Source: Bolinopsis microptera
Lineage: Eukaryota; Ctenophora; Tentaculata; Lobata; Bolinopsidae
DNA length: 64,000 nt
Direction: 5' to 3'
Assembly (NCBI RefSeq): GCF_026151205.1
Contig: NC_087072.1
Coordinates: 4,173,375-4,237,374 of the forward strand
Positions within the stretch are counted from its first letter, which is position 1; the number at the start of each line of letters is the position of its first letter. Position numbers and translations under genes: made by a program. The notes under the pieces were generated by a model. It was given only the letters and a program-made list of their open reading frames with translations, was not told where the DNA came from and searched no databases. Below, piece after piece: positions 7,832-32,902 of this stretch.

Positions 7832-10800
7832 TCAGAATCCTTGACGTTCTAGAAATTTAGTAACACTGTCAGCGAACTGCCCTGGTATGAGCACTCTACA
7901 GAATGGAGCGTCTATGTGTATGTAGGAGGGAGGATAGTCTTCTGTTTGTTGCAAATGTTCGAGAAGGTCCTCAACCAGTACGTTGTAATCACCAAATACC
8001 TGTTAGGACGTGATTAAGTATTATAATTCAACTTTAGTAACCAGAATAAACATGAACTGATAGAATAATATCAAACATTAATGAGCATATAATTTACACT
8101 AATGACTAACATTTACGAAGAATGATTAGAACTTAGATTTATAATCAGATGAGTTGATCTCAAGTCTCAATGATAATAATTGAACTAACCTAACAGAACT
8201 GTTCTGACAGGATATGGAGGCACTAACTTACCTTGTTAACAACTGTTCTGACAGGATATGGAGGCACTAACTTACCTTGTTAACGACTGTTCTGACAGGA
8301 TATGGAGGCACTAACTTACCTTGTTAACAGCTGTTCTGACAGGATATGGAGGCACTAACTTACATTGTTAACAGCTGTTCTGACGGGATATGGAGGCACT
8401 AACTTACCTTGTTAACAGCTGTTCTGACAGGATATGGAGGCACTAACTTACCTTGTTAACAGCTGTTCTGACAGGATATGGAGGCACTAACTTACCTTGT
8501 TAACAACTGTTCTGACAGGATATGGAGGCACTAACTTACCTTGTTAACAACTGTTCTGACAGGATATGGAGGCACTAACTTACCTTGTTAACAACTGTTC
8601 TGACAGGATATGGAGGCACTAACTCACCTTGTTAACAACTGTTCTGACAGGATATGGAGGCACTAACTTACCTTGTTAACAACTGTTCTGACAGGATATG
8701 GAGGCACTAACTTACCTTGTTAACAACTGTTCTGACAGGATATGGAGGCACTAACTTACCTTGTTAACAACTGTTCTGACAGGATATGGAGGCACTAACT
8801 AACCTTGTTAACAATTGTTCTGACAGGATATGGAGGCACTAACTTACCTTGTTAACAACCGTTCTGACAGGATATGGAGGCACTAACTTACCTTGTTAAC
8901 AGCTGTTCTGACAGGATATGGAGGCACTAACTTACATTGTTAACAGCTGTTCTGACAGGATATGGAGGCACTAACTTACCTTGTTAACAACTGTTCTGAC
9001 AGGATATGGAGGCACTAACTTACCTTGTTAACAACTGTTCTGACAGGATATGGAGGCACTAACTCACCTTGTTAACAACTGTTCTGACAGGATATGGAGG
9101 CACTAACTCACCTTTTTAACAATTGTTCTGACAGGATATGGAGGCACTAACTTACCTTGTAAACAACTGTTCTGACAGGATATGGAGGCACTAACTCACC
9201 TTGTTAACAATTGTTCTGACAGGATATGGAGGCACTAACTCACCTTGTTAACAATTGTTCTGACAGGATATGGAGGCACTAACTTACCTTGTTAACGACT
9301 GTTCTGACAGGATATGGAGGCACTAACTCACCTTGTTAACAACTGTTCTGACAGGATATGGAGGCACTAACTTACCTTGTTAACAACTGTTCTGACAGGA
9401 TATGGAGGCACTAACTCACCTTGTTAACAACTGTTCTGACAGGATATGGAGGCACTAACTCACCTTGTTAACAACTGTTCTGACAGGATATGGAGGCACT
9501 AACTCACCTTGTTAACAACTGTTCTGACAGGATATGGAGGCACTAACTTACCTTGTTAACAACTGTTCTGACAGGATATGGAGGCACTAACTAACCTTGT
9601 TAACAACTGTTCTGACAGGATATGGAGGCACTAACTCACCTTGTTAACAACTGTTCTGACAGGATATGGAGGCACTAACTTACCTTGTTAACAACTGTTC
9701 TGACAGGATATGGAGGCACTAACTTACCTTGTTAACAACTGTTCTGACAGGATATGGAGGCACTAACTAACCTTGTTAACAATTGTTCTGACAGGATATG
9801 GAGGCACTAACTAACCTTGTTAACAACTGTTCTGACAGGATATTGAGGCACTAACTTACCTTGTTAACAACTGTTCTGACAGGATATGGAGGCACTAACT
9901 AACCTTGTTAACAACTGTTCTGACAGGATATGGAGGCACTAACTAACCTTGTTAACAACTGTTCTGACAGGATATGGAGGCACTAACTTACCTTGTTAAC
10001 AACTGTTCTGACAGGATATGGAGGCACTAACTAACCTTGTTAACAACTGTTCTGACAGGATATGGAGGCACTAACTTACCTTGTTAACAACTGTTCTGAC
10101 AGGATATGGAGGCACTAACACATCAGTACATTCCATCTCCGAGATATCCAGCTCATTCTTCACTCTGTTCACATGGTACTCTGTCTGAAGAGAAGGGACA
10201 GTTAATATAAAAAGATTTCTGTGTGTTTGAACACTAATTTTAAGTTCTACTGTTTACGGTCCCAACTTTATCATTACTCAACATGCTTCACAACCACAGA
10301 TGTTTTATTATACGAGTCCCTTAGTCTCCGGATCCTGAGGTAATTTTGGGTTGAATGGGTTAGATCGAGGTCAAACTTTGCTCGCAGTTAGTAATACAAT
10401 AGTTCATGTTACTGTTAGTAGAGACTCCCAGGATCCTATTAGTTTTGTCATTGAAGTTCCGAACTTTAAGTTTAGTACTTGTTTTACTACAAACATAGCG
10501 TGACGAACTGAGTACGTATACCCAATGTTTCCTTGAGAGTGTAAAAACTAACATCTGTGAATACCATTATTATGATGTGACACCGCGCTCTCAGTTATAC
10601 TTATCTAACAAAATTATATGCCATTATCTCACTTTCTATCTCAACTGAAAACCGACCGTAATCTCAGATAGCACTGGTTAACGGATATAGCCTCGCGGTT
10701 GGCTGATATTTTAAGCTCCTGATACGTGGCTCTAACTTGAGAGGATGCCCTCGTTGTTCTTGTCGATCTTTACATTTTATCTCCATGATTTGCTTTTGTT

Positions 10801-11863
10801 TACGCTTCGAAACAGCTTTAGAACCTCTCTGATTTAGTATCTCCAGTTTAACTATTTTTATTGGACCATAATAAGATACTATACCATATTATCAGGTTGC
10901 ATTTTATTAGATTAGGGGCAATTATAAATTATAAATTATATGAACAGGCAAATTGTGTGCATAACCTAATTATCGTGACGTAACCTATATAGCAACAACA
11001 AATGCGCATAAACATTAAACAATACCAAAAATGCGCATGTCTGCTCATCAATAAAATGACTGACTGTACGACGGTTAGAGATTTGTTATATTTTAGGTAA
11101 CTTAGGTCCAATTTTTAATTTATGTTTTGGGCCCGGTTCGTCACTCGTTAGTGAACTGACTTCATATTATCTGATAACCTGGTATCTCTAATTTCTACAG
11201 TGACAATGATGTTGATAGTTCAGTTATTGATGATCCGAAATCTTCTCGCTTCGGCTACCAGTGGTAAGTAACAAAATAAATGTATTAGTGTAATGGCAGT
11301 TGTATTAGTGTAATGGCAGTTGTAATTAAGCGTACAGCAAGCTGATTATCATATTTTATTCGTTAATTTCAACAAAAATTTGCCAAAAGCCTGGAAATAC
11401 AGAATATTTAGAGCGGCCCATGCAATTGTTATAATAGTATTAAACTTTGTTGTTATAGACCGAAAAGTTTGCAGGTCAGAATAAGAACTCTCAAAGCCTG
11501 ACCAACTTTGCGTTGAACGAGTGAAACTTTAACAAAAACACTAACAAAGTTACAAAATCTTAAATCAAAACATAAGTACCACACCTCTAGATAACAACTT
11601 TTACTTACCGTAGGACTTTTCTCGTAAGTTATTCCCTTGGTCGCCTCCTGTCTAGCTGTGAGGAACTTAAGAAGAGGTAGCTCATTACCCTCACTGTCGT
11701 ACAAGTGTTCTTTTGTAACCTCGTAACCATGGTAACTTGTGGAGGAGTTTAATCGTGGTGAACACGCCGCAACTCTGCTTCTTAGTGGGACTAATCTTCT
11801 CAGACCGCGTAAACATAACATAGTGGCTCCTTTTTGGGGACGTGAGATTATTTTCATTGTCAT
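7832..11863 (-). CDS. Small putative mitochondrial protein, three exons, identity not recognised
   Basis: Exon 1 (11609 to 11821 or 11863) ends ACG|GTAAGT, exon 2 (10080-10184) follows CTCTTCAG and ends AAG|GTAAGT, and exon 3 (7832-7999) follows CCTAACAG and ends in TGA. All junctions are phase 0. Starting at the ATG at 11821 gives 161 aa; an in-frame ATG at 11863 gives 175. The N-terminus (MLCLRGLRRLVPLRSRVAAC) is rich in arginine and lacks acidic residues, like a mitochondrial presequence. The body is acidic and soluble-looking (YDSEGNELPLLKFL, VFGDYNVLVEDLLEHL, ending FLERQGF). No family was recognised. Intron 2 consists largely of a 44-bp minisatellite whose unit contains the exon 2 end and its donor. 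A missing small exon in the 1.4-kb intron 1 cannot be excluded. Confidence 0.65.
8206..10123. repeat. Minisatellite A: 44-bp unit, ~44 copies, spans a splice donor
   Basis: The unit contains GACAGGATATGGAGGCACTA on the plus strand. On the minus strand it is 40 nt of the end of exon 2 (coding VPPYPVRTVVNK) plus GTAA, so every unit rebuilds an AACAAG|GTAAGT donor at its junction. Units differ mainly at donor position +3: GTAAGT, GTGAGT or GTTAGT. A few units have GTAAGT after T instead of G. Reading on past the first donor meets a TAG at once, so the exon-proximal donor must be used for a full-length protein. Confidence 0.95.
11206..11263 (+). CDS. Possible orphan signal-peptide exon
   Basis: An ATG followed by a hydrophobic stretch (MMLIVQLLMIRNLLASATS) ends at CAGTG|GTAAGT, phase 1, the same length (58 nt) and phase as the receptor's signal-peptide exon. 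No downstream plus-strand exon was found, so it could be chance, a lost gene or an exon spliced to something not recognised. Confidence 0.25.
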
Positions 11864-12435
11864 AAGGAAAACATTGAGATTAGTATCTTCAATCCCAGTG
11901 CGATTCTGAATACTTTCTAGAATTTAAGATAAGAGATCAGTTTGTCAATCGATTTCAAAGTTTCATGATAAGAATTAAAAACGGAAATTTGATGAAATAT
12001 ATAATAGGTTGTTTTATTTCAAATTTTTTTATAATTTATAAAACATTAAATACAAATAAGAAATAAATATCAAAGTAACTGGAGCCCGGAACAATTCAAG
12101 GCTTTAAGTCGTCTGACGGATAAAAATTGTAAAATGTTTGTTTATTACAAACTAATCACGATAGACTTTAAAAAGAAACGTTAGTAGATCCCTCCCTATA
12201 CAAACTTTCAAAACATCGTCATCTGAGACTTCTAAGAAAAATATGGTCATATTCTGAACACAACAGCCATAGCAAACATGATCCACCCAAACCATGACAA
12301 GATGATAAATAATACCGTCCTCAACAATTCTACCCAGAAAATCATCCAAGACTGCATGTCATTAATAAATGATCCAGGTCATCTTGAGTCAAGTGACATT
12401 AAGAAATGATCCAGGTCATGTAAAGTCCAATAACA

Positions 12436-15400
12436 TTAAGAAATGATCCAGGTCATGTTAAGTCCAGTAGGACCCAAGTTAACAGGACCCAACATACCAT
12501 GCTGTTCCTCTCTCAGATAGTATAGCAATAAGATTAGAGTGTGGAACAGGTTGTTCCGTCCTTTACTGACCTGGGAATTACACTGTTAATTATACTGTTA
12601 TGTTGAGAAACAAGAGCGTGCAAAATATTGATGAAACAGTAAACACACTAAGATTTAAGGTTCGCATCGTAAACCTGGTAAACCTTGTAAACCTCGTAAA
12701 CCTGGTAACCCTTGTAAACCTTGTAAACTTTGTAAACCTTGTATTGCCACAATTCTTTCAATATCTTGTCAGAATTGGAGATGTTAAAGCTGGTAAACCT
12801 ATTATCTTACCTCCCACACCTCATCCCCCACTAATAGTTTAAAGTGAGGTGGGTACACTATTATCTTACCTCCCACACCTCATCCCCCACTAATAGTTTA
12901 AAGTGAGGTGGGTACACTATTATCTTACCTCCCACACCTCATCCCCCACTAATAGTTTAAAGTGAGGTGGGTACACTATTATCTTACCTCCCACACCTCA
13001 TCCCCCACTAATAGTTTAAAGTGAGGTGGGTAGACTATTATCTTACCTCCCACACCTCATCCCCCACTAATAGTTTAAAGTGAGGTGGGTACACTATTAT
13101 CTTACCTCCCATACCTCATCCCCCACTAATAGTTTAAAGTGAGGTGGGTACACTATTATCTTACCTCCCACACCTCATCCCCCACTAATAGTTTAAAGTG
13201 AGGTGGGTACACTATTATCTTACCTCCCACACCTCATCCCCCACTAATAGTTTAAAGTGAGGTGGGTACACTATTATCTTACCTCCCACACCTCATCCCC
13301 CACTAATAGTTTAAAGTGAGGTGGGTACACTATTATCTTACCTCCCACACCTCATCCCCCACTAATAGTTTAAAGTGAGGTGGGTACACTATTATCTTAC
13401 CTCCCACACCTCATCCCCCACTAATAGTTTAAAGTGAGGTGGGTACACTATTATCTTACCTCCCACACCTCATCCCCCACTAATAGTTTAAAGTGAGGTG
13501 GGTACACTATTATCTTACCTCCCACACCTCATCCCCCACTAATAGTTTAAAGTGAGGTGGGTACACTATTATCTTACCTCCCACACCTCATCCCCCACTA
13601 ATAGTTTAAAGTGAGGTGGGTACACTATTATCTTACCTCCCTCACCTCATCCCCCACTAATAGTTTAAAGTGAGGTGGGTACACTATTATCTTACCTCCC
13701 ACACCTCATCCCCCACTAATAGTTTAAAGTGAGGTGGGTACACTATTATCTTACCTCCCACACCTCATCCCCCACTAATAGTTTAAAGTGAGGTGGGTGA
13801 ATAGACGACTGGAACAGAGCGTACTCCTTCTTCTTGGTTTCCGCTTTGATGGGTGTCTGGACAAAGTACTGTGTCGTGAAGGTACGGCCCTGAACATATT
13901 GTGGTCATGTCAACTTCCAAGGGGTCGTCTGACGTCTTAGTGACATACAGATAACACGGTTTATAGTTTATATACAGTTTATATAGTTTATAGTTTAGTT
14001 AGATTCGTAGAATGTTAGTCAAGATAAACATTATGTTGTTTTACAGAAATTATTCAGTGGATCATATGTTCAATCAGTGATTAACAACAAAATAGCCCCA
14101 AAATAAATAAAGTCAGTAAATTAGGAAACCTCTGGGTACATAGGGTTTCTGGGGAGGTGAGAGTCGAGGTAGGTAGAGATACAGTGCATAACTATCTGGG
14201 AGTCAGTTGGTAACTCCTTGTTCCAGAGGCTGTTCTTGTACTTTCCACCTGATTCCCACCGAAAACTCCCTGGTTAGTGATCTGTCAGTTAGATGAAGAG
14301 TAAAAATCTGCTGTTATCTGACAAATTTGCTTAAAAGCCTCGGATTCTTAAGTGGTTTTCAGCACTTTTGCCAGAAAAGGGCAGAAATGTGCGGTATATA
14401 AAGATAATAACATGGATACAATAACAAGCTGAATATTCCATCAAGAACCTACCAACACAGACAGTAACATGGATACAATAACAAGCTGAATATTCCATCA
14501 AGAACCTACCAACACAGACAGTAATATGGATACAATAACAAGCTGAATATTCCATCAAGAACCTACCAACACAGACAGTAACATGGATACAATAACAAGC
14601 TGAATATTCCATAAAGAACCTACCAACACAGACAGTAACATGGATACAATAACAAGCTGAATATTCCATAAAGAACCTACCAACACAGACAGTAACATGG
14701 ATATAATAACAAGCTGAATATTCCATCAAGAACCTACCAACACAGACAGTAACATGGATACAATAACAAGCTGAATATTCCATCAAGAACCTACCAACAC
14801 AGACAGTAACATGGATACAATAACAAGCTGAATATTCCATCAAGAACCTACCAACACAGACAGTAACATGGATACAATAACAAGCTGAATATTCCATCAA
14901 GAACCTACCAACACAGACAGTAACATGGATACAATAACAAGCTGAATATTCCATCAAGAACCTACCAACACAGACAGTAACATGGATACAATAACAGGCA
15001 GAATATTCCATCAAGAACCTACCAACACAGACAGTAACATGGATACAATAACAGGCAGAATATTCCATCAAGAACCTACCAACACAGACAGTAACATGGA
15101 TACAATAACAAGCTGAATATTCCATCAAGAACCTACCAACACAGACAGTAACATGGATATAATAACAAGCTGAATATTCCATCAAGAACCTACCAACACA
15201 GACAGTAACATGGATACAATAACAAGCTGAATATTCCATCAAGAACCTACCAACACAGACAGTAACATGGATACAATAACAAGCTGAATATTCCATCAAG
15301 AACCTACCAACACAGACAGTAACATGGATACAATAACAAGCTGAATATTCCATCAAGAACCTACCAACACAGACAGTAACATGGATACAATAACAAGCTG

Positions 15401-18400
15401 AATATTCCATCAAGAACCTACCAACACAGACAGTAACATGGATACAATAACAAGCTGAATATTCCATCAAGAACCTACCAACACAGACAGTAACATGGAT
15501 ATAATAACAAGCTGAATATTCCATCAAGAACCTACCAACACAGACAGTAACATGGATACAATAACAAACTGAATATTCCATCAAGAACCTACCAACACAG
15601 ACAGTAACATGGATATAATAACAAGCTGAATATTCCATCAAGAACCTACCAACACAGACAGTAACATGGATACAATAACAAGCTGAAAATTCCATCAAGA
15701 ACCTACCAACACAGACAGTAACATGGATACAATAACAAGCTGAATATTCCATAAAGAACCTACCAACACAGACAGTAACATGGATACAATAACAAGCTGA
15801 ATATTCCATCAAGAACCTACCAACACAGACAGTAACATGGATACAATAACAAGCTGAATATTCCATCAAGAACCTACCAACACAGACAGTAACATGGATA
15901 CAATAACAAGCTGAATATTCCATCAAGAACCTACCAACACAGACAGTAACATGGATACAATAACAAGCTGAATATTCCATCAAGAACCTACCAACACAGA
16001 CAGTAACATGGATACAATAACAAGCTGAATATTCCATCAAGAACCTACCAACACAGACAGTAACATGGATACAATAACAAGCTGAATATTCCATCAAGAA
16101 CCTACCAACACAGACAGTAACATGGATACAATAACAAGCTGAATATTCCATCAAGAACCTACCAACACAGACAGTAACATGGATACAATAACAAGCTGAA
16201 TATTCCATCAAGAACCTACCAACACAGACAGTAACATGGATACAATAACAAGCTGAATATTCCATCAAGAACCTACCAACACAGACAGTAACATGGATAC
16301 AATAACAAGCTGAATATTCCATCAAGAACCTACCAACACAGACAGTAACATGGATACAATAACAAGCTGAATATTCCATCAAGAACCTACCAACACAGAC
16401 AGTAACATGGATACAATAACAAGCTGAATATTCCATCAAGAACCTACCAACACAGACAGTAACATGGATACAATAACAAGCTGAATATTCCATCAAGAAC
16501 CTACCAACACAGACAGTAACATGGATATAATAACAAGCTGAATATTCCATCAAGAACCTACCAACACAGACAGTAACATGGATACAATAACAAGCTGAAT
16601 ATTCCATCAAGAACCTACCAACACAGACAGTAACATGGATACAATAACAAGCTGAATATTCCATCAAGAACCTACCAACACAGACAGTAACATGGATACA
16701 ATAACAAGCTGAATATTCCATCAAGAACCTACCAACACAGACAGTAACATGGATACAATAACAAGCTGAATATTCCATCAAGAACCTACCAACACAGACA
16801 GTAACATGGATACAATAACAAGCTGAATATTCCATCAAGAACCTACCAACACAGACAGTAACATGGATACAATAACAAGCTGAATATTCCATCAAGAACC
16901 TACCAACACAGACAGTAACATGGATACAATAACAAGCTGAATATTCCATCAAGAACCTACCAACACAGACAGTAACATGGATACAATAACAAGCTGAATA
17001 TTCCATCAAGAACCTACCAACACAGACAGTAACATGGATACAATAACAAGCTGAATATTCCATCAAGAACCTACCAACACAGACAGTAACATGGATACAA
17101 TAACAAGCTGAATATTCCATCAAGAACCTACCAACACAGACAGTAACATGGATATAATAAAAAGCTGAATATTCCATCAAGAACCTACCAACACAGACAG
17201 TAACATGGATACAATAACAAGCTGAATATTCCATCAAGAACCTACCAACACAGACAGTAACATGGATACAATAACAAGCTGAATATTCCATCAAGAACCT
17301 ACCAACACAGACAGTAACATGGATAGAATAAAAAGCTGAATATTCCATCAAGAACCTACCAACACAGAAAGTAACATGGATACAATAAAAAGCTGAATAT
17401 TCCATCAAGAACCTACCAACACAGACAGTAACATGGATACAATAACAAGCTGAATATTCCATCAAGAACCTACCAACACAGACAGTAACATGGATACAAT
17501 AACAAGCTGAATATTCCATCAAGAACCTACCAACACAGACAGTAACATGGATACAATAACAAGCTGAATATTCCATCAAGAACCTACCAACACAGACAGT
17601 AACATGGATACAATAACAAGCTGAATATTCCATCAAGAACCTACCAACACAGACAGTAACATGGATACAATAAAAAGCTGAATATTCCATCAAGAACCTA
17701 CCAACACAGACAGTAACATGGATACAATAACAAGCTGAATATTCCATCAAGAACCTACCAACACAGACAGTAACATGGATATAATAACAAGCTGAATATT
17801 CCATCAAGAACCTACCAACACAGACAGTAACATGGATACAATAACAAGCTGAATATTCCATAAAGAACCTACCAACACAGACAGTAACATGGATACAATA
17901 ACAAGCTGAATATTCCATAAAGAACCTACCAACACAGACAATAACATGGATACAATAACAAGCTGAATATTCCATCAAGAACCTACCAACACAGACAGTA
18001 ACATGGATACAATAAAAAGCTGAATATCCCATCAAGAACCTACCAACACAGCTCCCACTAGCTAGTTCCCCCATCCTGTGCACCAGATACTCCTGGTTCA
18101 CACTGACCTCCAAGTACGGTAACAGCAATGCTGAAGAAAGGTCTTGTTATGGATGATACATGCTATTAATAAGGTTACTGGTATACTTTGGTAACTGAGT
18201 CACACTGGGTACGTTTCTTTCAAACTACTTAACTATAGTCGGATATCCGATCAATTTCTAAATTTTATCAGAGTGAAATTGAGTGGAATTTGAATTAAAA
18301 TATTGTCAAATTGTTATCATTCTAGAGGGTACCTGTCACCAAGATGTAACTAGGTCGAACGGAGAAATGAGGTCTCACGCAGGAATTAGGTCTCACGCAG

Positions 18401-21400: not shown

Positions 21401-24400
21401 GACTGTTATACGCCATACCAGCATGTGCTTGTTTGAGTTTCGACCAAGCTGCTATAAACTAGACTAACACTCACTTACCAACAGACTAGAGACCACTAGT
21501 TTAGATAAACGACCACGCTCTAAACTAATAATGTAGAGCGTGGTTGGTCTCAGAACATAAACAACGCTCAGCAGTATTACTCAGTAGGACAGTGTTTGAG
21601 GCTTCACTAATACTAGTGAGTACTGACCCTGATAACAGAGCCCATCTAGACTATGTCTAGACAAGTTCATTATGTCGTCTGGTGCCCCGTCTCCATCACC
21701 CTGGAATCTCTGGAAATAGGAAAGCTAAGGATTGGCTCTCGTAAACCCGTGTCACGTACTTGCCTATAAGAATCACAGTCGTTGCCGTGAATCATCACAT
21801 TTATTTTTAACCGTTTGCTTTCGAGTAACAGCTCTTGTGTAGCTAATCCTTTGACTCAACGGAGAAATCTACGTGAACACCGCTATTTATTGACAAGATG
21901 AAGTTAAATAAGGTTCTCAAATATTGCATGATTGTTGGCTCCAAGGGTATCATGACAATCTTGGTCATGACTATCTTCCTAAAGGGGATATCAGCTGAAG
22001 GCATTGTTCTTGACCTTGATAACACAGATAGCAAAGGTAGGCTAAGAACAAGGATAAGATCGATGTGAATTTATCAATAGGCAATTCATTATAATACCAT
22101 AATACCTCGTTTATTGAGTGCTGCGCGCGATAATGCCCGAACGTATGTGAATACTACTACGAGCTCGTAGCACGAAATTAAGCCAAGGCGTGATTTGCGA
22201 CTCAATAAGCGTTTGATAATATGCCATGAAGACTCGCATACAATAAACACTGTTTAAAGCAGCTCATCTTTCAGATGAAGTTGTTCAAGTTCAATTTCCT
22301 GAGACGCATTCCCACGTATTCTACAATGGAGATTACTGTTGTAAACATAACAGAGAGAGAACAGATGGTGGTGTTGGGTGTGACGGTAGTGTGCTTTACA
22401 GAGACGACAGTATTTGCTGCCTTAATATGGATCAGATCTTCTGTCCAGATCGGCCAACAAAGTGCCAGAGTTACGGAGGTAGGTGATATTTTATTAAGTA
22501 GCCCCCTCCCCTCCCCTAAGTTACACATCTTTCAGTATTAGCGTCAATAGCAGTTGCAATGTTTCACTTCATACTACTAATGTAAAGTGCACAGCTTTAG
22601 TGTCTACATTGAATGTTGCAAAGCTTAAATGCGCATCAATGTTTTAAAAGCATTATAATTGTAAGGAAAAGTTACAAATCGTGATTTTCAACAAATTTAC
22701 AAAATTAATCGCTTTAAATAATCTTCATTGAATCACGAGAATGTCTAAGTAGCTCAATCGGACATTTTTGTGACCTCGCACGAATAGACCTATAACATGT
22801 ATAATGTATATTGTACAACTGCGTCCTAATATTGTATAAGCTAACATGTTGCTATCATTTTATAGGCTGGATAACAGTAAAACCAGGTGCAGACCTCGTC
22901 CACGACCTGGAAACTACTCCACTAGAAATTAAGACAGATTCTTTAACAAGTCGAGACGAAAAAGTGGTTGTTACAGGGGTAGATTCAAGTGGTAGTCTCA
23001 TTTTCGAACTCGGCATCTTTTTCAATCAAAAAATTCCACAGTAAAACCTGTTAAATTGCATTAAATTACATGCTAAATTCTCGACGGCACCTTCCACCGC
23101 TGTAGACAAGGTGTGGAAGATAACCTTGTCCAGAATTCCAAATATCCGACTAAAGATAGACTGTAATGGAGAAGAAGTTACAAACATCCTTATCAATGCT
23201 AAAGATTGTGCGGATTGGAATAAAATCGTCCACAAAATAAAATTCGAAGTAAGGGATACAGCATCCGATCACTACAGATCTGCTCCAGGTATAAATCGAT
23301 ATTAGTCTAGTAAAGTTGATATAGGGATGTAAACCTTAGTTGCGGTATCTTATATGTGTGTTTTTGAGGAGCATGCTTTTTCCTGCTAGCACAGGACGAC
23401 AACTTAAACGATAATGGCGATTCATATTAATATATATAATAAGGAATCCTTATTATGAATTTCCTTATTAAGGATAGGATCAAGTCTCTGTATTTTAGTT
23501 ACATTCAATGTAAATATTAACACAATATGTCCACATCAGTCGAATGCACTGCACTAAAGGATGAGTGGATAAATACGATGGAATACGATACAACAAAGTT
23601 TCCAGTAGTCGCAGAAACAGTTCTGGAAGTCACGTGTTCTGACACAGGAGCTATCAAGAAAGGGAGCAGCAAAGTGACCTGTATTATGGGAACTGAATTC
23701 TCTTACTCGGACGAACCAAGTAGTTCAAGACCAGGTATGAGGTAGAGTTACGAAAAAAAATGCTTTAGAAGAGGAATGCGAAAAGAACATTATCCATGAT
23801 ATATATATTTATAATAATGTGTTAATAAAGTTTTGGACTTTATTGAAACAAAATTTTAATAAAACAAATCCCTTCCTCGTGCCATCCCCCTCCTCCCCCA
23901 CCTCCCCCATCTCCCCCACCTCCCCCACCTCCCCCTCCTCCCCCTCCTCCTCCACCTCCCCCACCTCCCCCACCTCCCCTCCTCCCCCACCTCCCCCACC
24001 TCTCCCACCTCCCCCACCTCCCCCACCTCCCCCACCTCCCCCTCCTCCCCCTCCTCCCCCACCTCCCCCACCTCCCTTCGCCATTCCCTTTTCGTGGTAA
24101 TACTGACACCAACAGTTCCCAACAGTCTACGGACCAATACCATATATGGATGACTATTAACTAAGATATCAATATGTTAAGTATATATTGCAGATATTGT
24201 AACGCCTGATTCAACTTCAAAATGGTGGACCCTCGATATTAGAATCCAGCTGATCAGGATAAGACGCTTGTTATTTTTGAAAAATTAGATTTATAGATAG
24301 GACAGGCTTAGAAGTAATGGGGCCAGTGGTCTTCTTATATTTTTTGAGAATTTATTGTTCATATTTTGTCTGATTTTGATGATTGATCGCGATAGGTAAG

Positions 24401-27400
24401 ATTTCATAGGAATGTAAATGTAAATAATTGTTTCAGATTATAAAGAAATTAGTCGGTTCAAAGCCAAGACTTGCTGAGACGAACCATAGGACGACTCGGA
24501 CTACATGTTACACACAGAAATCACTGAAAATCCAGAAAACTTATTGTTCAGGTTTTATTTCATATTAAAGTTTTTTTTTTCAGTGAAATTAGTAAGTAAG
24601 TTGCACTGTTTAATATTTGCTGCCATAAAAACCACAAACAAATTGAAAACCTCAGATAACACTTTTATAACTGAACTAATTTCAGATTTCAGAACCGGTC
24701 ACTGAGAGCTCTGATTCTTTGTAGGGGGCTGTGATGAAGAGATTAACGGACACTTGGATCATAACCAACATGGTGCTTGAGAACAATTGGTTATCAAGTT
24801 TTAATAAATGATTACTCTTTAGTTATTTAGAGAACAATTAGGTGTATTGATGCTTTTCATACGAACAAGTAAAAACAAATTCTTTATGTCGTGCATCCTG
24901 GGCCGGGTTTGGACAGGATATGCTCGCTTAAAATACTTCCATCGCGTTACATTACATAATTCTCAATAAATGTAATAGATTTGTAGTGTTGTAATTAGTT
25001 TAGTATATTTGTAAATTTGTTTCATTTTTAGTTATTTAGAGAATAATCAGTTATAAAGTTTTAACATTTTACTCTTTAAGTTAAGTTATTTAGAGAACAA
25101 TTGGGAATAACTTTTTTAAATATTTTCTTCTTGTGAATATTGTTAATGATATTGTAATTACATTGACATAACATTGCGTTTATGCAATATGCATTGTTTT
25201 TTTTGTCCACATTTTATTAAAGTACAAAAATAACGCATTTCTTCAACAATGTGGTAATTTTGATAAGGTCTCAAAGAACTGCAAAATACCATTGATTTTC
25301 GTGTCTAACCCTAAACTTGCCACGAACAACATTATAGCTTATTGCTCGGATAAATCCCGGAATAGAAGATAGAGGATAAGATTAATTAATATCGCAGGAA
25401 GACTAGGTCTAATTGAAAGTGTGATAAGCTAATAAAATTCTTTTTGTCGCAGGAAATAAACAAAACAATCCTTTCCTCGTTCACATATCACATTACAGTA
25501 AACCTATTCCACTAACCAATATTGCTGATGTGTTCGTGTTTACACTAAAACACTACAGTAAACCTATTCCACTAACCTATACTGCTGATGTGTTCGTGTT
25601 TACACTAAAACACTACAGTAAACCTAGTCCACTAACCTATACTGCTGATGTGTTCGTGTTTACACTAAAACACTACAGTAAACCTAGTCCACTAACCAAT
25701 ATTGCTGATGTGTTCGTGTTTAGTGGTGGAGACCTTGCTGAGGACCGCTGTGCTGACTGACCCTATCTTACACTCCGCTGATCCCACCTGGTCTAGTGTT
25801 TTGTTTATTGTCTTTATCTCCCGGTGTATGTGCTGAGAGAGAGAAGGAGTGAGAATAGTGAGAGAGAGGAGAAGAGATGAGGTGGTCAACAACAATTAAC
25901 GTCGACTACGTTTTAATTATTGATTTCCAAACAAGCAGCAGAAGTGTGTTTACGTTATATAATGTGAACGGTCCATTGGACAAAAATTCAGTTGATAGAA
26001 ATATATCCTTGTTCAGATTAGATAAATAATCAATAATCATGCAACTCAGACCTGGAATATCGTCTGCGAGATCCACTTCCGAATATTCTCGGTCCAAACA
26101 TCAAGACTATGGGGGGAGACACCCAACCTCTCCAAGAGAGCATCAGCTGCCTGCTGGTTGTAATAGCTGGTGTCCCCTGACACAGACACTATCTGGTTCT
26201 GGGTAGCTAGAAAGTAGGGTCGGGGTGGCAAGGTCTCTGTGGGTCGTGGAGCCCACCCTCCCGCCAGACTCCTGTCAGAACTACCACGTGACAGCCACTT
26301 CTCCTTCTCCTCGTACTCCTTCAGGTACTCAGATAAATTGTTCAGGTCGGAGACTCTCTTTCGGATTTTAGGAGAGGCCGAGAAGTGGTAGTTGCTGTCC
26401 CCGTCTCGAGCTGGTGTTGAGAAACTGGAAAAGGTAGTTAGATGTTAGTCACAAGTACCTTACATAATCCACCTTAACTGGAGGAATTTTAACAACAGAA
26501 ATAATGAAATCGAAAACCACAGAAAACAGGAGATCGTATAAAATATACCTCATATTAGTGTTATTATCATAATAGTTATATACCTCATATTGGAGCTGAT
26601 AGAATGGAATGAGGAGTTAGACTGGAAGGAGGTGCTGAGAGTCATGTTGGAAGTGCTGAGAGTCATGTTGGAGTTAGGGTTGAGAGAGGTGGAGAGAGGA
26701 GGAGTGAAGGGTTCCCTGGTCGGTTGGTTGGAGACGAGTAAATGCGGGGTTACTGGAGCACTGTGACACGAGTTGTGCTCAGGAGAGGAGAGCATACTCG
26801 TGTTAATCGCTTTGTTGGGAGTGTTCTCTGAAAAACAGTCGTTTGTGAATTAGGTTCTCATTATCTTTTACCTTTTTTAGACTGAACGTAAAGATGAAAA
26901 TTCTGAAGATCAAATAATGTAAAATAAAGTTACGAAAATAAAGTAATGTTCACGACAGTACAATTAGGAAGTGTCCGTTATACAAGAATTTTACCACGCA
27001 AGAGCAATCTACCCGGCCTTACCATATACCAGTAAGTGTCAGCTAAATCTCTGTACTCACCGCATATTTTAACAACAGGTCGAGCTAAAGATCTAATATT
27101 AAGAAGGAGAGATTGAGTAGGGGAGAGAGCAGTGAGATCCTCTTTAAACTTGCGGCTGCTGACGTAGGTGATGACGTCACATATTGCTGACACTCCACAC
27201 ACAACTGACAGTGAGATCTGGTGGAGATATTGTGAAGTAATAGAAAATACAAATTATAGACCTGTTCCTGATAGAAATTTTTTCACTAAACTTAATGATA
27301 TTAAGTCTTAACAAATACTTAACATATTTTAAAGCAACATATATAATAATTGGGAATATTGTTCCAGCTCATGATCTCTCAAATTGAATATTTTACATCA

Positions 27401-27856
27401 TCGTATCTCACGATTCCCATAAAATGCTGCTCGCTAACTTTCACTACGAAAAATATAAAGATAAAAACAAACCTCGAGATATTGCCCATACAAAATATGA
27501 TCAGGAGATAGTTCTACGATTGAGGAGATGAAGTAACCGCCGAGTCGTAGAGCGAATACCACACACAGGACCGTATTTATACCGCACCATTTCAGTGCCT
27601 CGTCCCCGGCTATTAGCTGTGAGGTATAGTATACTTATAGCAATTACGATACTCATGAAATTTATTTTTTCGCTATGTTTAAACTTTCCACACTATTATT
27701 TCAGGCATAAAATTGAACACACAAAAAGTAGATCACTTAATAACTTCTACATTCTTTGCAATGATGATATATACAATAAATAAAAGAAAAACTTACCTTA
27801 TATTTAGCTTTGATACTTTTTTCAACAAGCGGAGTTTGAAATGTCGCTGTGGGCAT
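12436..27856 (-). CDS. TMEM209: TMEM209 orthologue (nuclear-envelope membrane protein), ten exons
   Basis: Exons 27797-27856, 27473-27616, 27061-27217, 26584-26827, 26052-26424, 25697-25832, 18044-18130, 14130-14269, 13755-13889 and 12436-12570 join in phase to 536 aa; human TMEM209 is about 560. Two N-terminal TM segments lie in exons 2-3 ([35 protein letters not shown]), a Ser/Thr/Asn-rich linker in exon 4, and the conserved C-terminal domain in exons 5-10: [55 protein letters not shown] and a final MLGPVNLG. The human protein is known at the nuclear envelope with NUP205. Donors are canonical except GTTTCC after exon 8 and GTCTGA after exon 5. Introns 6, 7 and 9 each begin with a minisatellite carrying the donor. 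Intron 6 hosts two plus-strand genes. Three near copies of a GACCTGGATCATTTCTTAAT block surround the stop codon. Confidence 0.93.
12797..13797. repeat. Minisatellite B: 59-bp unit, ~17 copies, spans the TMEM209 exon 9 donor
   Basis: On the minus strand the unit is the last 44 nt of exon 9 (coding [14 protein letters not shown]) plus 15 nt of intron beginning GTAAGATAATAG. Copies are almost identical, with scattered single changes, so the array is young or well homogenised. A TAA lies just after each donor, so only the exon-proximal donor leaves the protein intact. Confidence 0.95.
14400..18043. repeat. Minisatellite C: 57-bp unit, ~64 copies, spans the TMEM209 exon 7 donor
   Basis: On the minus strand each unit contains CTGTGTTG|GTAGGT, matching the last 8 nt of exon 7 and its donor. 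The unit length is a multiple of three, and the whole array reads open in the exon 7 frame as a 19-residue repeat ([19 protein letters not shown]). The open frame of about 1,260 codons is intron sequence, not an independent gene. Confidence 0.95.
18333..18506. mobile_element. MITE-like inverted-repeat element
   Basis: The left arm starts CTGTCACCAAGATGTAACTA and the right arm ends TACATCTTGGTGACAG, near-complementary over about 70 bp including AGGTCTCACGCAGG blocks that are doubled on the left. It lies in TMEM209 intron 6. No clean target duplication is seen. Confidence 0.7.
18541..18870. repeat. Tandem duplication of ~130 bp upstream of the TSP1 gene
   Basis: Blocks near 18550-18668 and 18745-18868 share AATAATATGC, CGATATATTCGCAGCGCTTC and GAGCAGCTTATA, about 195 bp apart. 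The region lies just upstream of the TSP1 gene start, so it may be a duplicated promoter segment. No TATA-type core was identified with confidence. Confidence 0.6.
18991..19872 (+). CDS. Secreted protein with two TSP1 repeats and a C-terminal WSC-like Cys domain
   Basis: A single-exon frame of 293 aa. Residues 1-22 are a signal peptide ([16 protein letters not shown]). Residues 23-85 are lysine- and cysteine-rich. Two thrombospondin type 1 repeats follow at about 88-142 ([14 protein letters not shown]) and 144-198 ([13 protein letters not shown]), each with the WSxC start and CxxxCG core. About 203-293 is a Cys domain of WSC-like pattern ([29 protein letters not shown]). No TM segment or anchor follows, so it should be secreted; an extracellular-matrix, venom-like or adhesive role cannot be chosen from sequence. 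It lies inside TMEM209 intron 6 on the opposite strand. The lack of introns suggests a retrocopy or an intron-poor gene. A second copy of its last domain follows at 20229-20446. Confidence 0.85.
   Translation: MGKLHVLLSVVTILGLLSETGGQCKSSDKALSRKKKILAKCLKQGYQSSLEGCVSDNGEQKSKQAKRCKKAEKLLASSDVSCVDKVDGGYGPFGEWSACSVACGTGVQSRTRECNDPAPSGIGGDCVGKAREVRACNKDTCPVDGGWGPPGEWSACTAECGGISGTRYRSRNCDNPSPKEGGSDCPGVATEIQACSYTNACQKICTQQYIGCWRDNKIRAITGGVRLNGDVEQCRAYTQSRGYHVFAVQYHSECFTSSDAHETFDQYGRANDCINGKGGDWANDVYQINCVEV
19888..20228. repeat. 11-bp minisatellite (GAGACTGGAGG), ~30 copies
   Basis: Starts about 15 bp after the TSP1 gene stop codon and ends exactly where homology to its last domain resumes. Later units change to GAGACTGGACG. 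Stop-free frames across it on both strands come from the repeat itself and are not genes. Confidence 0.95.
20229..20446 (+). pseudogene. Second copy of the TSP1 gene's last Cys domain
   Basis: Reads in frame [56 protein letters not shown] then TAA, aligning with the last about 75 residues of the upstream TSP1 protein. It starts inside the domain right after the 11-bp minisatellite and lacks the CWRD start. It is either a remnant of a tandem gene duplication or an alternative terminal exon. Cysteine positions are conserved well enough that loss of function is not certain. Confidence 0.6.
20447..21216. other. TMEM209 intron 6 sequence, nothing recognised
   Basis: AT-rich sequence after the duplicated Cys domain. 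No exon, RNA gene or clear element was recognised. Confidence 0.4.
21217..21459 (-). pseudogene. F-BAR-like coiled-coil fragment with a frameshift
   Basis: On the minus strand one frame reads [20 protein letters not shown], then [13 protein letters not shown]. About one base later a second frame continues [20 protein letters not shown] to a TAA at 21217. Together they resemble the middle of an F-BAR or PACSIN-type coiled coil (KKVExAKxxYHxAC). The frame break and lack of splice sites suggest a decayed, perhaps retroposed, copy. The family call is weak. Confidence 0.35.
21489..21551. repeat. Short hairpin
   Basis: ACCACGCTCTA and TAGAGCGTGGT are inverted around a short spacer, with GAGACCA and TGGTCTC further out. 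It is probably a small foldback or MITE remnant. Confidence 0.5.
21898..24288 (+). CDS. Cysteine-rich secreted protein with CCP-like domain, five exons, one in-frame stop
   Basis: Exons 21898-22036, 22275-22478, 22866-23288, 23540-23734 and 24194-24288 all join phase 1 with GT-AG borders (donors GTAGGC, GTAGGT, GTATAA, GTATGA; acceptors TTTCAG, TTATAG, CATCAG, TTGCAG). Exon 1 gives a hydrophobic leader ([19 protein letters not shown]). Exon 2 is Cys-rich ([27 protein letters not shown]). Exon 3 resembles a farnesoic-acid-methyltransferase-like beta domain ([20 protein letters not shown]). Exon 4 is CCP/sushi-like but lacks the fourth cysteine. A TAA at 23042-23044, codon 174 of 352, interrupts exon 3 with the frame intact on both sides, consistent with a Lys-to-stop change. 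The gene is therefore a young pseudogene, a polymorphic null or a sequence error. It is nested in TMEM209 intron 6. Confidence 0.6.
23880..24080. repeat. Pyrimidine-rich simple repeat (CCTCCCCCA)n
   Basis: About 200 bp of CCCCCACCT-type units in the last intron of the nested Cys-rich gene. Open frames across it (poly-Pro on one strand, poly-Gly or Gly-Glu on the other) are produced by the repeat. The strand bias could favour triplex or G-quadruplex structures. Confidence 0.95.
24289..25490. other. TMEM209 intron 6, AT-rich with degenerate repeats
   Basis: No exon seen. Three imperfect copies of a block containing GTTATTTAGAGAACAATT occur between about 24770 and 25110, spaced by 120-250 bp. 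Confidence 0.4.
25500..25720. repeat. Minisatellite D: 60-bp unit, ~4 copies, spans the TMEM209 exon 6 donor
   Basis: On the minus strand the unit holds the last 26 nt of exon 6 (CACATCAGCAATATTG) followed by GTTAGTGGACTAGG. The copy at 25697 joins the rest of the exon and gives the phase needed for exon 7. Every unit has the same ATTG|GTTAGT donor, followed at once by an in-frame TAG if unspliced. Confidence 0.9.
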
Positions 27857-27872
27857 TCTATTCAACTAAGTA

Positions 27873-28248: not shown

Positions 28249-28668
28249 ATGGAATCGCCTATTACAGCAGGGTTCTCTTTCGAAGGAGCGTCCAGAAGAG
28301 CTAAACTAAGGTTAATATTACTTTATTTCAGTTTCCTCAGTCGACCCTAGCGATATAAGTTTATGTTGAAATATGTATGTATGTCTTTGATAATTCTCTG
28401 AGTGGCTATTTAAGACTTTGCCATCCGGTTCTTAAATTATTAGGTTGAACAATATGTACCGGATTAGGTTGAACAATATGTAACGGATTGAGTGCCGTAA
28501 GAAGCCTATGTTCAGGGAAACCCCTCGAACATTCTGATAAAGATAAAATTGAAAAGTTTATATATTTTCAGTGACAAGAGGTCCTTGCTCAGTATTCACA
28601 ACATACCTCTTCCAGCCCTTGCTATAACACTTGCTTTCTTCGCTGCTATCATTCTTTTTAACATATAA
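28249..28668 (+). CDS. 52-aa tail-anchored membrane microprotein, two exons
   Basis: Exon 1 (28249-28310) starts ATGGAATCGCC and ends CTAAG|GTTAAT, phase 2. Exon 2 (28572-28668) follows TATTTTCAG and ends in TAA. The 52-aa product has a basic N-half (GASRRAKLSDKRSLL) and one C-terminal TM helix (ALAITLAFFAAIILF), the layout of a tail-anchored protein of the secretory pathway. The family was not recognised. It is head-to-head with TMEM209, 390 bp apart, which suggests a shared promoter. Confidence 0.55.
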
Positions 28669-28789
28669 CTGGGATCAGCAAGTTTGTCTGATATAATTTG
28701 AACAATCTGACCCTCCCAGATGAACTTTAAATTGAAACATTGAATCTAATCTGTTTTTAGAATCGAACTTTTCGTATACTTAACTTAAT

Positions 28790-29935: not shown

Positions 29936-30129
29936 CAGGCAGGTGTTCATACCACGTGTTTCTGACCACGTGGTTCAGTTGTGTAATCTCCGGCCGGTTA
30001 AAGCTGGTAATAGCTCATTATACACACAAGCAGTAGCAGTGGGTTTGATCTGTACACTCTGACCGTTGTGATCTTGTTTTAACGTTATGCTCTGAAGCGG
30101 GGGAGGTTGTGTCTGGGCAGTGTTTATTA

Positions 30130-32902
30130 ATGCCACAAGCAGGGTTACTCTCGTTTGTTTTGTTCCATTTGTTAGTGTCAGTACCAGGAGAACCACAACA
30201 CGAGGGCAAAAAGGTGGACAACAAGTTCCACGAGGGAGGAGATGAAGCAGACCCTCATGAAGTAGACTGGGCTGATAAGAAGGCGACCAGTAACCACCTG
30301 GTTCATAGCAATAAATGGGGCAGAGACCCTGAGGTACTGATACTATTCAACTTAATAGTTACCATCTCCCAGTTATATTATGAATCTTAAATTATTATCA
30401 CTTGATCTAAAAAAAGAACTGTTAGTTGTGTTATTGAGTAGTAAGATCACGTGTTATTGTTCAGTTGTGTTATTGAGTAGTAAGATCACGTGTTACTGTT
30501 CAGTTGTGTTATTGAGTAGTAAGATCACGTGTTACTGTTCAGTTGTGTTATTGAGTAGTAAGATCACATGTTATTAATGTTCAGTTGTTTTATTGAGTAG
30601 TAGGATCACGTGTTACTGTTCAGTTGTGTTATTGAGTAGTAAGATCACGTGTTACTGTTAGTTGTGTTATTGAGTAGTAAGATCACGTGTTACTGTTCAG
30701 TTGTGTTATTGAGTAGTAAGATCACATGTTATTAATGTTCAGTTGTGTTATTGAGTAGTAGGATCACGTGTTACTGTTCAGTTGTGTTATTGAGTAGTAA
30801 GATCACGTGTTATTCATCAGTTGTGTTATTGAGTAGTAAGTGTTACTGTTCAGTTGTGTTATTGAGTAGTAGGATCACGTGTTACTTTTCAGTTGTGTTA
30901 TAAGTTATTGAGTAGTAAGATCACGTGTTACTGTTCAGTTGTGTTATTGAGTAGTAAGATCACGTGTTACTGTTAGTTGTGTTATTGAGTAGTAAGATCA
31001 CGTGTTACTGTTCAGTTGTGTTATTGAGTAGTAAGATCACGTGTTATTGTTCAGTTGTGTTATTGAGTAGTAAGATCACGTGTTACTGTTCAGTTCTTCA
31101 GTTGTGTTATTGAGTAGTAAGATCACGTGTTACTGTTAGTTGTGTTATTGAGTAGTAAGATCACGTGTTACTGTTCAGTTGTGTTATTGAGTAGTAAGAT
31201 CACGTGTTATTGTTCAGTTGTGTTATTGAGTAGTAAGATCACGTGTTACTGTTCAGTTCTTCAGTTGTGTTATTGAGTAGTAAGATCACGTGTTATTGTT
31301 CAGTTGTGTTATTGAGTAGTAAGATCACGTGTTACTGTTCAGTTGTGTTATTGAGTAGTAAGATCACGTGTTACTGTTCAGTTGTGTGAAGAGTTTTTCC
31401 TGAACGGAGCTCCGGGCCAGTGCCAGGAGCAAGACACGTGTTGTGGCCTGCTCAACTACACTCAGACTGCCTTCACTGTTCAGATATACTGCTGTCACGA
31501 CAATGAGAAGTTAGTAAACTTTACATTTACAGAAAGTAGAACAAATCCTCCAACTAAAACAACTTTAATTATAGAAGAATGTTCTGAAGAAACCCCTCCT
31601 AGATCAATAACAAGTGTTTTACAGGTGCTGCCAAGGACTGTGCTGTGATGAGAACACAGTTTGCTGTAGAGACAGAGTAGATAAAGAGAAGAGAAGCTCG
31701 GGGTACGGACAGTGCTGCAACAAGGCCAGGTAATCATCCTCACGCACAACAACATTCCGGTATAGAAGCATCATTTAATTGCGGCAAAAACTCGCAAATA
31801 ATACGATCTCGCAACTTTTCTTATTTTTAAATTGCGCAAAGGAATAAAGAAAATACACAGCAAATTGAGCAAATCCGCAACCGCCGCAACAAAATGGTGC
31901 CTCTGAACATAAGCCCTGCACACACATAAATACATCTCCAACCCCATCTCCGACTGACTACCCCAGACGGCCCGGCTGATCAGGATTATATCACGTGGTT
32001 TAGATTTGTCTGCAGAAACCAGACACTATAAATAGCCTGAAATAGCCAGAAAACTGGTAACCCAGTCTTGAGAGCCTTGCTAGCCCGGATACCGGCTCAT
32101 TATACCTTATCTGACAACATGTTAAACTGGTACTGTGATATCGTTTTCCAAAGAGGCTCAATACGATACTTATGATCCATACACTCACGGTATTCGATAT
32201 CTCTATGATTAGGCAGCAGCAAATATTATGTAGTTATGTCTTTAAAATATTGACTTTGTTTTAAATCGTTTTCGATTATCGCACAAATGTTTCCTTAAGA
32301 TTTAAGAGAAAAAACGGTAAGTACACATCTGTGTTGTTGTTGTTTGTTGTTTTTCAGTCGTATTCATCAGTTTTCTAGACATTTATCTAAAAATTAAGGT
32401 CATCTATAAGTTAATCTTAAATCTTAATTTAGGACTTCCAAACAAATACATGACACTGACAACAATATATGAATATTTATTATCCGTTGCGGTTATTAAG
32501 GATTCATAGCCCACAGTTTGTTGTTCTCGTTTTGCCGCACCTTTGCCGGATAAGTTCCATTTTTCCTGCATAGAAGTTTTATCTAGTTACAATTTAAAAA
32601 ATGATTACTTGTCGATTTCACATTATGTTATGTTGGAGGCAAATAATTAACATAATTAACATAACTAATGACCACCACTGCCCAGGGGATGCTGTACGGA
32701 TATAAGAGGTAATGTAGTTTGCTGCGGGACCATGTTAGGACGGTACTGGTGGGTTATAGCGGTCATCCTGACCATCTACATCGCCAGCAAGGTTACCATG
32801 ATGATCAGGAGGTACCGGGCCATGCCTGATATAGGAGAAGATCGGATTAAGGCAGACAAGCAACTCAATGTACGAATCAAAAGTATGACCTATTGCTGCT
32901 AG
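30130..32902 (+). CDS. Cysteine-rich single-pass membrane protein, five exons including a 23-nt microexon
   Basis: Exons 30130-30333, 31382-31509, 31625-31729, 32686-32708 and 32739-32902 join in phase to 207 aa. Residues 1-22 are a signal peptide (AGLLSFVLFHLLVSVPG). An acidic/His region follows, then a Cys-rich ectodomain dense in CC pairs (DTCCGLLNY, IYCCHDNE, CCQGLCCDENTVCCRD, GQCCNKA), a 23-nt exon adding GCCTDIR, then a TM helix (WWVIAVILTIYIASK) and a short basic tail RRYRAMPDIGEDRIKADK. The alternative start upstream at 30109 is GTG and less likely. Intron 1 is mostly minisatellite E, whose unit carries the acceptor of exon 2. The family was not recognised; CC-rich patterns recall small secreted or receptor-like proteins. 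Confidence 0.7.
30420..31385. repeat. Minisatellite E: ~39-bp unit, ~24 copies, spans a splice acceptor
   Basis: The unit includes TTATTGAGTAGTAAGATCAC and ends GTGTTACTGTTCAG|TTGTGT, matching the exon 2 acceptor and its first six exonic bases at 31382. Copies vary in length by small indels and end at the exon. This is the only array of the five at the 3' end of an intron. Confidence 0.95.

What the first reader, a model, noticed from the sequence alone, without database searches (positions are those of the whole stretch)
8206..31385. Five minisatellites in three genes each lie across a splice site
The arrays at 8206-10123, 12797-13797, 14400-18043, 25500-25720 and 30420-31385 have unrelated unit sequences (44, 59, 57, 60 and 39 bp). 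Yet each unit contains the edge of a coding exon plus its splice site: 40, 44, 8 and 26 nt of exon with the donor, and 6 nt of exon with the acceptor. Five out of five is hard to explain by chance, since introns are mostly interior sequence. It suggests a local process that expands exon-intron junctions (slippage, R-loop or splicing-coupled repair), or selection for repeated splice sites. I do not recall a described class of this kind.
Basis: partly seen in the sequence, partly recalled or inferred. Interest (0 to 1): 0.88.

Follow-up and report, generated by a model that had tools for sequence, protein, structure and literature searches.

The report
Repeat arrays spanning exon-intron borders
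In a comb jelly, short stretches of DNA that straddle the border between a gene's coding part and its intron have been copied many times in a row; this kind of repeat was already described in lancelets, and here it turns up in several unrelated genes.

Summary
The window is chromosome 1 of the comb jelly Bolinopsis microptera. Five minisatellites, in three genes (mL49-like, TMEM209-like with three arrays, LOC134817909), each span a splice site, with 40, 44, 8, 26 and 6 nt of exon in the unit.

The class is not new. Tandem repeats across exon-intron borders are called 'mirages' in amphioxus; human and potato cases exist.

'Five of five' overstates the case. Array-collapsed introns have a median of 233 bp, so a 39-60 bp unit touching its host intron crosses an edge by chance 31-41% of the time (1.7% for the one long intron). 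A sixth array crosses a stop codon, and smaller arrays lie inside introns. Of 31 arrays outside the window, one crosses a donor with weak homology support, three more may, and most are undecided.

Still, the pattern recurs: arrays elsewhere cross a dynein donor and a sushi-like donor. Two donor octamers occur in about 3-4 times more array loci on C1 than three near-miss octamers (p 0.001-0.02, small numbers).

Best reading: mirage minisatellites in a minisatellite-rich, short-intron genome. The exon-nearest copy works and the rest are spliced out. A bias towards splice donors is possible but unproven.

The parts
8197..10119 (-). Array 1: 44-bp unit x43.7, across the donor of exon 2 of an mL49-like gene (exon ..PPYPVRTVVNK|gtaagt, last exon base 10080; 40 nt of exon in the unit)
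   Evidence: TRF; border; Pfam Img2 PF05046 spans the junction
12799..13798 (-). Array 2: 59-bp unit x16.9, across the donor of exon 9 of the TMEM209-like gene (..[15 protein letters not shown]|gtaaga, last exon base 13755; 44 nt of exon)
   Evidence: TRF; border; relative P0001 reads DEVWEVSKGRNN
14408..18051 (-). Array 3: 57-bp unit x63.9, across the donor of exon 7 of the TMEM209-like gene (..GELASGSCV|gtaggt, last exon base 18044; 8 nt of exon). The unit is 19 codons without a stop
   Evidence: TRF; border; P0001; open frame 14331-18146
25490..25722 (-). Array 4: 60-bp unit x3.9, across the donor of exon 6 of the TMEM209-like gene (..KHEHISNI|gttagt, last exon base 25697; 26 nt of exon)
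   Evidence: TRF; border; PF09786 whole-protein match
30418..31387 (+). Array 5: 39-bp unit x24.4, across the acceptor of exon 2 of LOC134817909 (gttcag|TTGTGTGAAGAG, first exon base 31382; 6 nt of exon)
   Evidence: TRF; NCBI protein P0009 identical across the junction
12360..12469 (-).
   Evidence: TRF; CDS end
12436..27856 (-). TMEM209-like gene, 10 coding exons: 27856-27797, 27616-27473, 27217-27061, 26827-26584, 26424-26052, 25832-25697, 18130-18044, 14269-14130, 13889-13755, 12570-12436
   Evidence: PF09786 E 7e-72 (the gene name TMEM209 is recalled)
7832..11863 (-). mL49-like gene, 3 coding exons: 11863-11609, 10184-10080, 7999-7832
   Evidence: PF05046 Img2
30130..31731 (+). First three coding exons of LOC134817909 (cysteine-rich; NCBI protein 217 aa); outer limits approximate
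12669..12743 (-). 9-bp x8.3 array wholly inside TMEM209-like intron 9: an intragenic array that does not cross a border

Best explanation
These are 'mirage' minisatellites. In each case one tandem duplication happened to include the end of an exon plus its splice site, and the array then grew by the usual unequal exchange or slippage. The copy next to the exon stays the working splice site. The other copies lie on the intron side and are removed with the intron, so the protein is unchanged. They look frequent because this genome is very rich in minisatellites and most introns seen are only about four to five units long, so a large share of intragenic duplications must touch a border. Expansions wholly inside exons are mostly removed by selection; those over a border leave the protein intact. 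Shown: anatomy, borders, array identity, recurrence in other genes. Inferred: origin by one duplication, use of the exon-nearest site, purging in exons, neutrality.
For: Borders and overlaps. Array-collapsed introns: median 233 bp of 13; a unit touching its host intron crosses an edge with P 0.31-0.41 for four of the five arrays, 0.017 for array 4. Using a more distant copy would hit an in-frame stop in arrays 1, 2, 4 and 5 (AAG GTA AGT TAG; GAG GTA AGA TAA; G GT TAG; TTG TGT TAT TGA; sequence), so the exon-nearest site should be the one used; only array 3 stays open. The NCBI protein uses the exon-nearest acceptor. Density: 39 arrays with unit 20 bp or more and 2.8 or more copies in 304 kb. 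Further crossing arrays in dynein, sushi-like and EGF-like exons, and arrays inside dynein 1 introns. In amphioxus mirages RT-PCR suggested normal splicing (PMC3087553, passages).
Against: Locally, 5 of 6 larger arrays in the three genes crossing is more than random placement gives (P 6e-5 to 0.012, post hoc). Array 4 lies at the edge of an intron of about 6.9 kb after collapsing, where chance is 1.7%. Donor octamers are about 3-4 times enriched in array loci over near-miss octamers. Repeats of 20 bp or more with about two copies in the same genes cross no border (0 of 4), so the junction arrays seem to be the ones that grew.
Confidence: 0.66

Rival explanations
1. Splice donors are hotspots for the birth or growth of minisatellites, for example through R-loops, U1 binding or repair coupled to splicing.
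For: Array loci in the same C1:1-17.65 Mb: AGGTGAGT 9, AGGTGACT 2, AGGTAACT 4, AGGAAAGT 1, against single copies outside arrays 7, 8, 7, 14 in 245 kb: P 0.001, 0.0035 without array 1, 0.02 against AGGTGACT alone, 0.007 allowing for noise in the singles. In C1:1-3.11 Mb the two donors have 8 of 12 loci (P 0.008; 7 of 11 unit families, P 0.019). Two of four independent AGGTAAGT array types cross exon ends with homology support. Units of 12 of the 15 array loci listed for AGGAAAGT also score high as donors (Fisher P 0.03).
Against: Donors lie in genes and the control octamers mostly do not, so a general excess of arrays in genes would give the same result. Small numbers, listings cut at 100 places, singles from only 245 kb. 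Three of the five AGGTAAGT loci are a dispersed element (two) or a microsatellite. Donor hexamer GTAAGT is in 2 of 91 sample arrays against 1.3 expected, and 0 of 19 units in 170 kb reach P below 0.05 as donors.
Confidence: 0.2
2. The expansion machinery prefers a GGTAA(C) core, and splice donors are hit because they resemble it.
For: GGTAAC is in 10 of 91 sample arrays against 1.2 expected, GGTTAC 9 against 1.2. AGGTAACT, a poor donor, gives 2639 tandem matches genome-wide against 3 for its reverse, like AGGTAAGT with 1491 against 12.
Against: AGGTGAGT lacks the GGTAA core and still gives 1351 against 188 for its reverse, and 424 for AGGTGACT. Counted by loci, AGGTAACT (7 loci in the 27 Mb listed) is behind AGGTAAGT (5 loci in the 3.1 Mb listed). 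Arrays 3 and 4 use GGTAGG and GGTTAG donors.
Confidence: 0.1
3. Repeated splice sites are selected, to give alternative isoforms or to make splicing robust, as in the human IFI6 minisatellite.
For: Array 3 is 19 codons per unit and open through all copies (ORF 14331-18146, 1271 aa). Its donor 9-mer never varies in 64 copies, nor does that of array 2 in 17.
Against: The donor +3 is the most variable site of array 1, differing in 17 of 43 copies, 10 of them to G, which is still a good donor, and 7 to T. In arrays 1, 2, 4 and 5 other copies lead to stops. Only 11 of 171 possible single changes of unit 3 give a stop, so an open frame over few distinct changes is weak evidence. The relative's protein has no such repeat.
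Confidence: 0.04
4. The borders are wrong or the arrays are assembly artefacts.
For: No RNA-seq could be read here, and array 4's border is less directly supported.
Against: NCBI protein, Pfam and a relative's protein agree with the borders. Array copies differ from each other, and the assembly is Hi-C scaffolded to 13 chromosome-scale pieces (PMC10232365, passages).
Confidence: 0.03

Closest known systems
Mirage minisatellites of amphioxus (Adh3, globins BflGb6 and BflGb9, TnC, PGBD5); PMC3087553 (abstract and passages), PMC3902484 (one passage), Canestro et al. 2002 (seen as a citation only)
   Same: Minisatellite-like tandem duplications of an exon-intron boundary, at donors and at acceptors, with splice signals in the copies
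   Different: Another phylum; units 39-60 bp (amphioxus 10-160 bp), up to 64 copies here against 3-6 reported for BflGb6; splicing and copy-number instability untested here
Variable internal tandem repeats at exon-intron boundaries in human segmental duplications (PMC2812944, passages)
   Same: Minisatellites at exon-intron boundaries; 27 intron modifications after manual inspection
   Different: Recent paralogs, with transcript evidence for novel introns; here conserved genes and no sign of a new intron
IFI6 (6-16) minisatellite giving multiple splice donors (Turri, Cuin and Porter 1995; title seen in reference lists of PMC2572611 and PMC4526556, one sentence on its use in PMC4526556; paper not held)
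   Same: A minisatellite that provides several donors; array 3 here is also in frame
   Different: In IFI6 downstream units are used as donors; use of further copies is not shown here and would hit stops in four of five arrays
[quoted passage not shown]
   Same: The duplicated segment crosses an intron-exon boundary
   Different: There the duplication made a new intron; here each array touches only one end of its intron

Membership tests
Mirage minisatellites (amphioxus) | Tandem repeat unit contains an exon edge and the neighbouring intron | tested here: met
   Five of five arrays
Mirage minisatellites (amphioxus) | Both 5' and 3' intron boundaries can be affected | tested here: met
   Four donors, one acceptor (P0009)
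Mirage minisatellites (amphioxus) | Copies homogenised (concerted evolution) | tested here: met
   TRF matches between copies 97, 99, 98, 96 and 88%; the same variants recur in several copies. No tree of copies was made
Mirage minisatellites (amphioxus) | Regular splicing is not disturbed | not testable with these tools
   Indirect only: NCBI protein joins at the exon-nearest acceptor
Mirage minisatellites (amphioxus) | Copy number varies between haplotypes or cells | not testable with these tools
   One assembly only
Minisatellite with alternative donors (IFI6 type) | Several repeat units are used as donors in transcripts | not testable with these tools
   Only array 3 would allow it without a stop
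Intron gain by tandem duplication | Both splice sites of the intron lie in copies of the duplicated segment | tested here: not met
   Each array touches one end only; 149-240 bp of intron remain after collapsing in four of five, 6.9 kb in the fifth

The most novel reading that the evidence does not exclude
In Bolinopsis, splice donors are real hotspots for minisatellite birth or growth, perhaps at hundreds of loci genome-wide and at three to four times the rate of matched non-donor sequence. The coding ends of exons are thereby drawn into concerted evolution with dozens of junk copies in the intron. That would make a transcription- or splicing-linked expansion process measurable in one genome.
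Probability: 0.27. Interest if true: 0.72.

Novelty: new member of a known kind. Interest (0 to 1): 0.45.

Why it matters
It carries the amphioxus mirage phenomenon to comb jellies, in conserved genes and with far more copies than the BflGb6 case. With many loci in one genome one can ask, statistically, why arrays sit on splice borders and whether junk copies rewrite coding exon ends. If the donor bias is real, it points to an expansion process linked to transcription or splicing.

Tried and rejected
A home-made gene finder on array-collapsed DNA recovered at most 4 of 13 known exons and was dropped; one search was a script error. Donor scores of units alone (score matrix recalled, not fitted) separate poorly: of the window's five, array 1 has P 0.002 and array 2 P 0.011 against random windows, arrays 3 and 4 are ordinary. 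In 34 arrays other than the five, units score higher than their own reversed sequence in 21 (Wilcoxon P 0.017), in random loci in 15 of 25 (P 0.039). In 12 of the 15 array loci listed (three were not typed) donor scores were also high (KS P 0.007, Fisher P 0.03). Raw tandem-match counts were first read as a 124-fold donor excess; AGGTAACT showed that match counts mislead, since single arrays give dozens of matches, so loci were counted instead. The singles had been taken with nine extra small loci in the folder; a recount without them gave the same numbers for the octamers used. An acceptor pattern TTTTCAGG did not complete. Flanks of the five C1 array loci: two cross exons, two are one dispersed 32-bp element, one is a microsatellite. 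Pfam on 140 ORFs near the 31 arrays, of 490 found, and on ten of these, gave mainly a dynein, a GMC oxidoreductase and a transposon-like lipase. No structure prediction was made.

Papers: PMC3087553 abstract and passages; PMC3902484 one passage; PMC2812944, PMC12783039, PMC12221973, PMC10232365, PMC11797021 and PMC4526556 passages; PMC2572611 a reference entry; PMC4974935 abstract and outline; others search listings only. In the passages shown from three ctenophore papers nothing is said on minisatellites at splice sites; the search 'ctenophore' with 'minisatellite' gave 2 papers, neither on ctenophore genomes by title.
Full report
Where it is. The window lies at G000:C1:4173375-4237374 of a 264.65-Mb genome in 232 contigs. 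A spliced protein from the window (146 residues) is identical to part of NCBI 'uncharacterized protein LOC134817909 [Bolinopsis microptera]' on a contig of 26,206,493 bp, the length of C1. B. microptera has 13 chromosome-scale scaffolds and an estimated genome of about 254 Mb (PMC10232365, passages).

The observation. All five arrays exist with the stated units. I built the gene models by hand from the sequence and checked them. The first gene is an mL49-like mitochondrial ribosomal protein (Img2, PF05046, E 6e-7, 30.1 bits against a cut-off of 34.4). The next three arrays lie in one gene, TMEM209-like (PF09786, E 7e-72; the name is recalled), which runs on the minus strand from 27856 to 12436; its sixth intron of 7.5 kb seems to hold plus-strand genes (by eye). 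The fifth lies in LOC134817909. A relative's protein (P0001, 72% identity over 66% of the query) reads straight across the junctions of arrays 2 and 3. It has an extra stretch at the junction of array 4, which I take for a gene-model error, so that border rests on phase, the Pfam match and more distant relatives compared by eye.

What was left out. In the same genes a sixth array of comparable unit (37 bp, three copies, 12360-12469) crosses the stop codon. A 9-bp array (12669-12743) and two-copy repeats at 11281-11324, 13945-13997 and 26491-26536 lie inside introns, and one at 26628-26672 lies inside an exon. So for units of 20 bp or more, arrays with at least 2.8 copies cross a splice site in 5 of 6 cases and those with about two copies in 0 of 4.

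Chance. After collapsing arrays to between one and two copies, the 13 introns of these genes have a median of 233 bp; 11 of them are about 110-255 bp and two are 1.4 and 6.9 kb (LOC134817909 limits approximate). A unit touching its host intron would cross an edge with P 0.31, 0.40, 0.38, 0.017 and 0.41 for arrays 1-5. Placed at random over the three genes, P(cross) is 0.10 (all introns) to 0.30 (without the longest intron and without exon-internal positions). Five or more of six then has P 6e-5 to 0.012. The test was made after the pattern was seen, so it is suggestive only.

Outside the window. In 304 kb (window, 30 kb of flanks and 210 kb from 21 places) TRF finds 39 arrays with unit 20 bp or more and at least 2.8 copies, 31 of them outside the window. 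Three of the 31 could be set beside sequence with homology. L016:2862-7109 (35-bp unit) crosses the donor of an EGF-like exon (Pfam EGF E 0.01, below its cut-off). L018:4314-4443 lies inside a 190-bp intron of cytoplasmic dynein 1 heavy chain (downstream exon aligned to PDB, upstream exon end by eye). L018:882-1531 begins just 3' of a GMC oxidoreductase frame. Two smaller-unit arrays of the dynein gene also lie inside introns (3870-3907 between two aligned exons; 5298-5385 by eye), and a 19-bp array from 6408 to the end of the locus is undecided. Three more of the 31 (L020:9301, L022:7731, L006:7029) may cross donors on open-frame evidence only. The rest are undecided.

Genome-wide patterns. 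I searched for three copies of an octamer 28-58 bp apart. Matches, with the count for the reversed pattern: donor AGGTAAGT 1491 (12), near-miss AGGTAACT 2639 (3), AGGAAAGT 204 (157), donor AGGTGAGT 1351 (188), near-miss AGGTGACT 424 (25). Single copies outside arrays in 245 kb are 5, 7, 14, 7 and 8 (recounted). Matches are clumped, so loci are the fairer count. In C1:1-17.65 Mb AGGTGAGT has 9 array loci (array 1 among them), AGGTGACT 2, AGGTAACT 4, AGGAAAGT 1 (P 0.001; 0.0035 without array 1; 0.007 with uncertain singles). In C1:1-3.11 Mb the two donors have 8 of 12 loci (P 0.008). Each listing stops at 100 places, which sets these limits. Flanks of the five AGGTAAGT loci show that two cross exon ends: a dynein heavy chain exon ..LLQFLPVFESSVKQSDR|gtaagt (PDB phmmer E 4e-14; Pfam AAA_9 below its cut-off) and a sushi-like exon ..EIISCERGGTFNQPQIQCTKK|Ggtaagt (Pfam Sushi E 0.0024, slightly under its cut-off). 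Two are the same dispersed 32-bp element and one is a microsatellite.

Within the arrays. Donor GT is never changed in 128 copies of arrays 1-4, but the +3 position of array 1 differs from consensus in 17 of 43 copies, 7 of them T; the donor 9-mer is invariant in arrays 2 and 3. Copies are 88-99% alike. Variants are shared between copies, so counts are not independent, and selection can be neither shown nor excluded. Using another copy would bring a stop codon in arrays 1, 2, 4 and 5 (from the sequence). Array 3 is open (19 codons per unit), but only 11 of 171 single changes would close it, so openness is weak evidence.

Mechanism. The simplest account is a tandem duplication over the junction, expansion by unequal exchange or slippage, and splicing at the exon-nearest copy, the rest being carried as intron. 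Seen this way the arrays need no special function. The donor enrichment may reflect a splice-linked process, a general excess of arrays in genes, or both; intron-restricted controls are needed.

Known kinds. Tandem repeats over exon-intron borders were named 'mirages' in amphioxus Adh3 and seen in globins, TnC and PGBD5, with both boundaries affected, length and somatic instability, and RT-PCR suggesting normal splicing (PMC3087553, PMC3902484). In human segmental duplications, minisatellites at exon-intron boundaries alter splicing (PMC2812944). These arrays meet the structural features of mirages that I could test; instability and splicing are untested.

Noticed in passing
304 kb sample (window, L002-L025): Unrelated minisatellites share a GTAAC/GTTAC core: GGTAAC in 10 of 91 arrays (unit 8 bp or more, 2.8 or more copies) against 1.2 expected, GGTTAC 9 against 1.2, AGTAAC 10 against 1.7.
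   Followed up: partly
window 14331-18146 (-): Array 3 is an open reading frame of 1271 aa, 19-residue repeats [19 protein letters not shown]; gene predictors may call it coding.
   Followed up: partly
window 19888-20232: An 11-bp x31.5 array follows the end of a coding frame and reads in frame into a second copy of what looks like the same cysteine-rich domain (WSC/TSP1-like by eye only).
   Followed up: no
window 18976-24000 (+): Plus-strand coding frames, perhaps two genes, appear nested in the 7.5-kb sixth intron of the TMEM209-like gene (by eye).
   Followed up: no
G000:C1:36576-37703 and 761375-762150: The same 32-bp unit with alike flanks at two places: a dispersed element that carries its own minisatellite with a donor-like AGGTAAGTACC.
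   Followed up: partly
L028 (G000:C1:884400-886000): Just before the dynein donor array the same exon carries a partial tandem duplication of about 180 bp, readable in frame.
   Followed up: no
window 37600-39009, 44273-47275, 55987-58980: Long open frames that look like reverse transcriptases of non-LTR elements (by eye).
   Followed up: no
window 38978-39539: Dense palindromic CCGGTTATAAG / CCGGCTATAAGC short repeats.
   Followed up: no
window 47125-50093 (-): C2H2 zinc-finger frames with 84-bp repeats, an ordinary coding tandem repeat (by eye).
   Followed up: no
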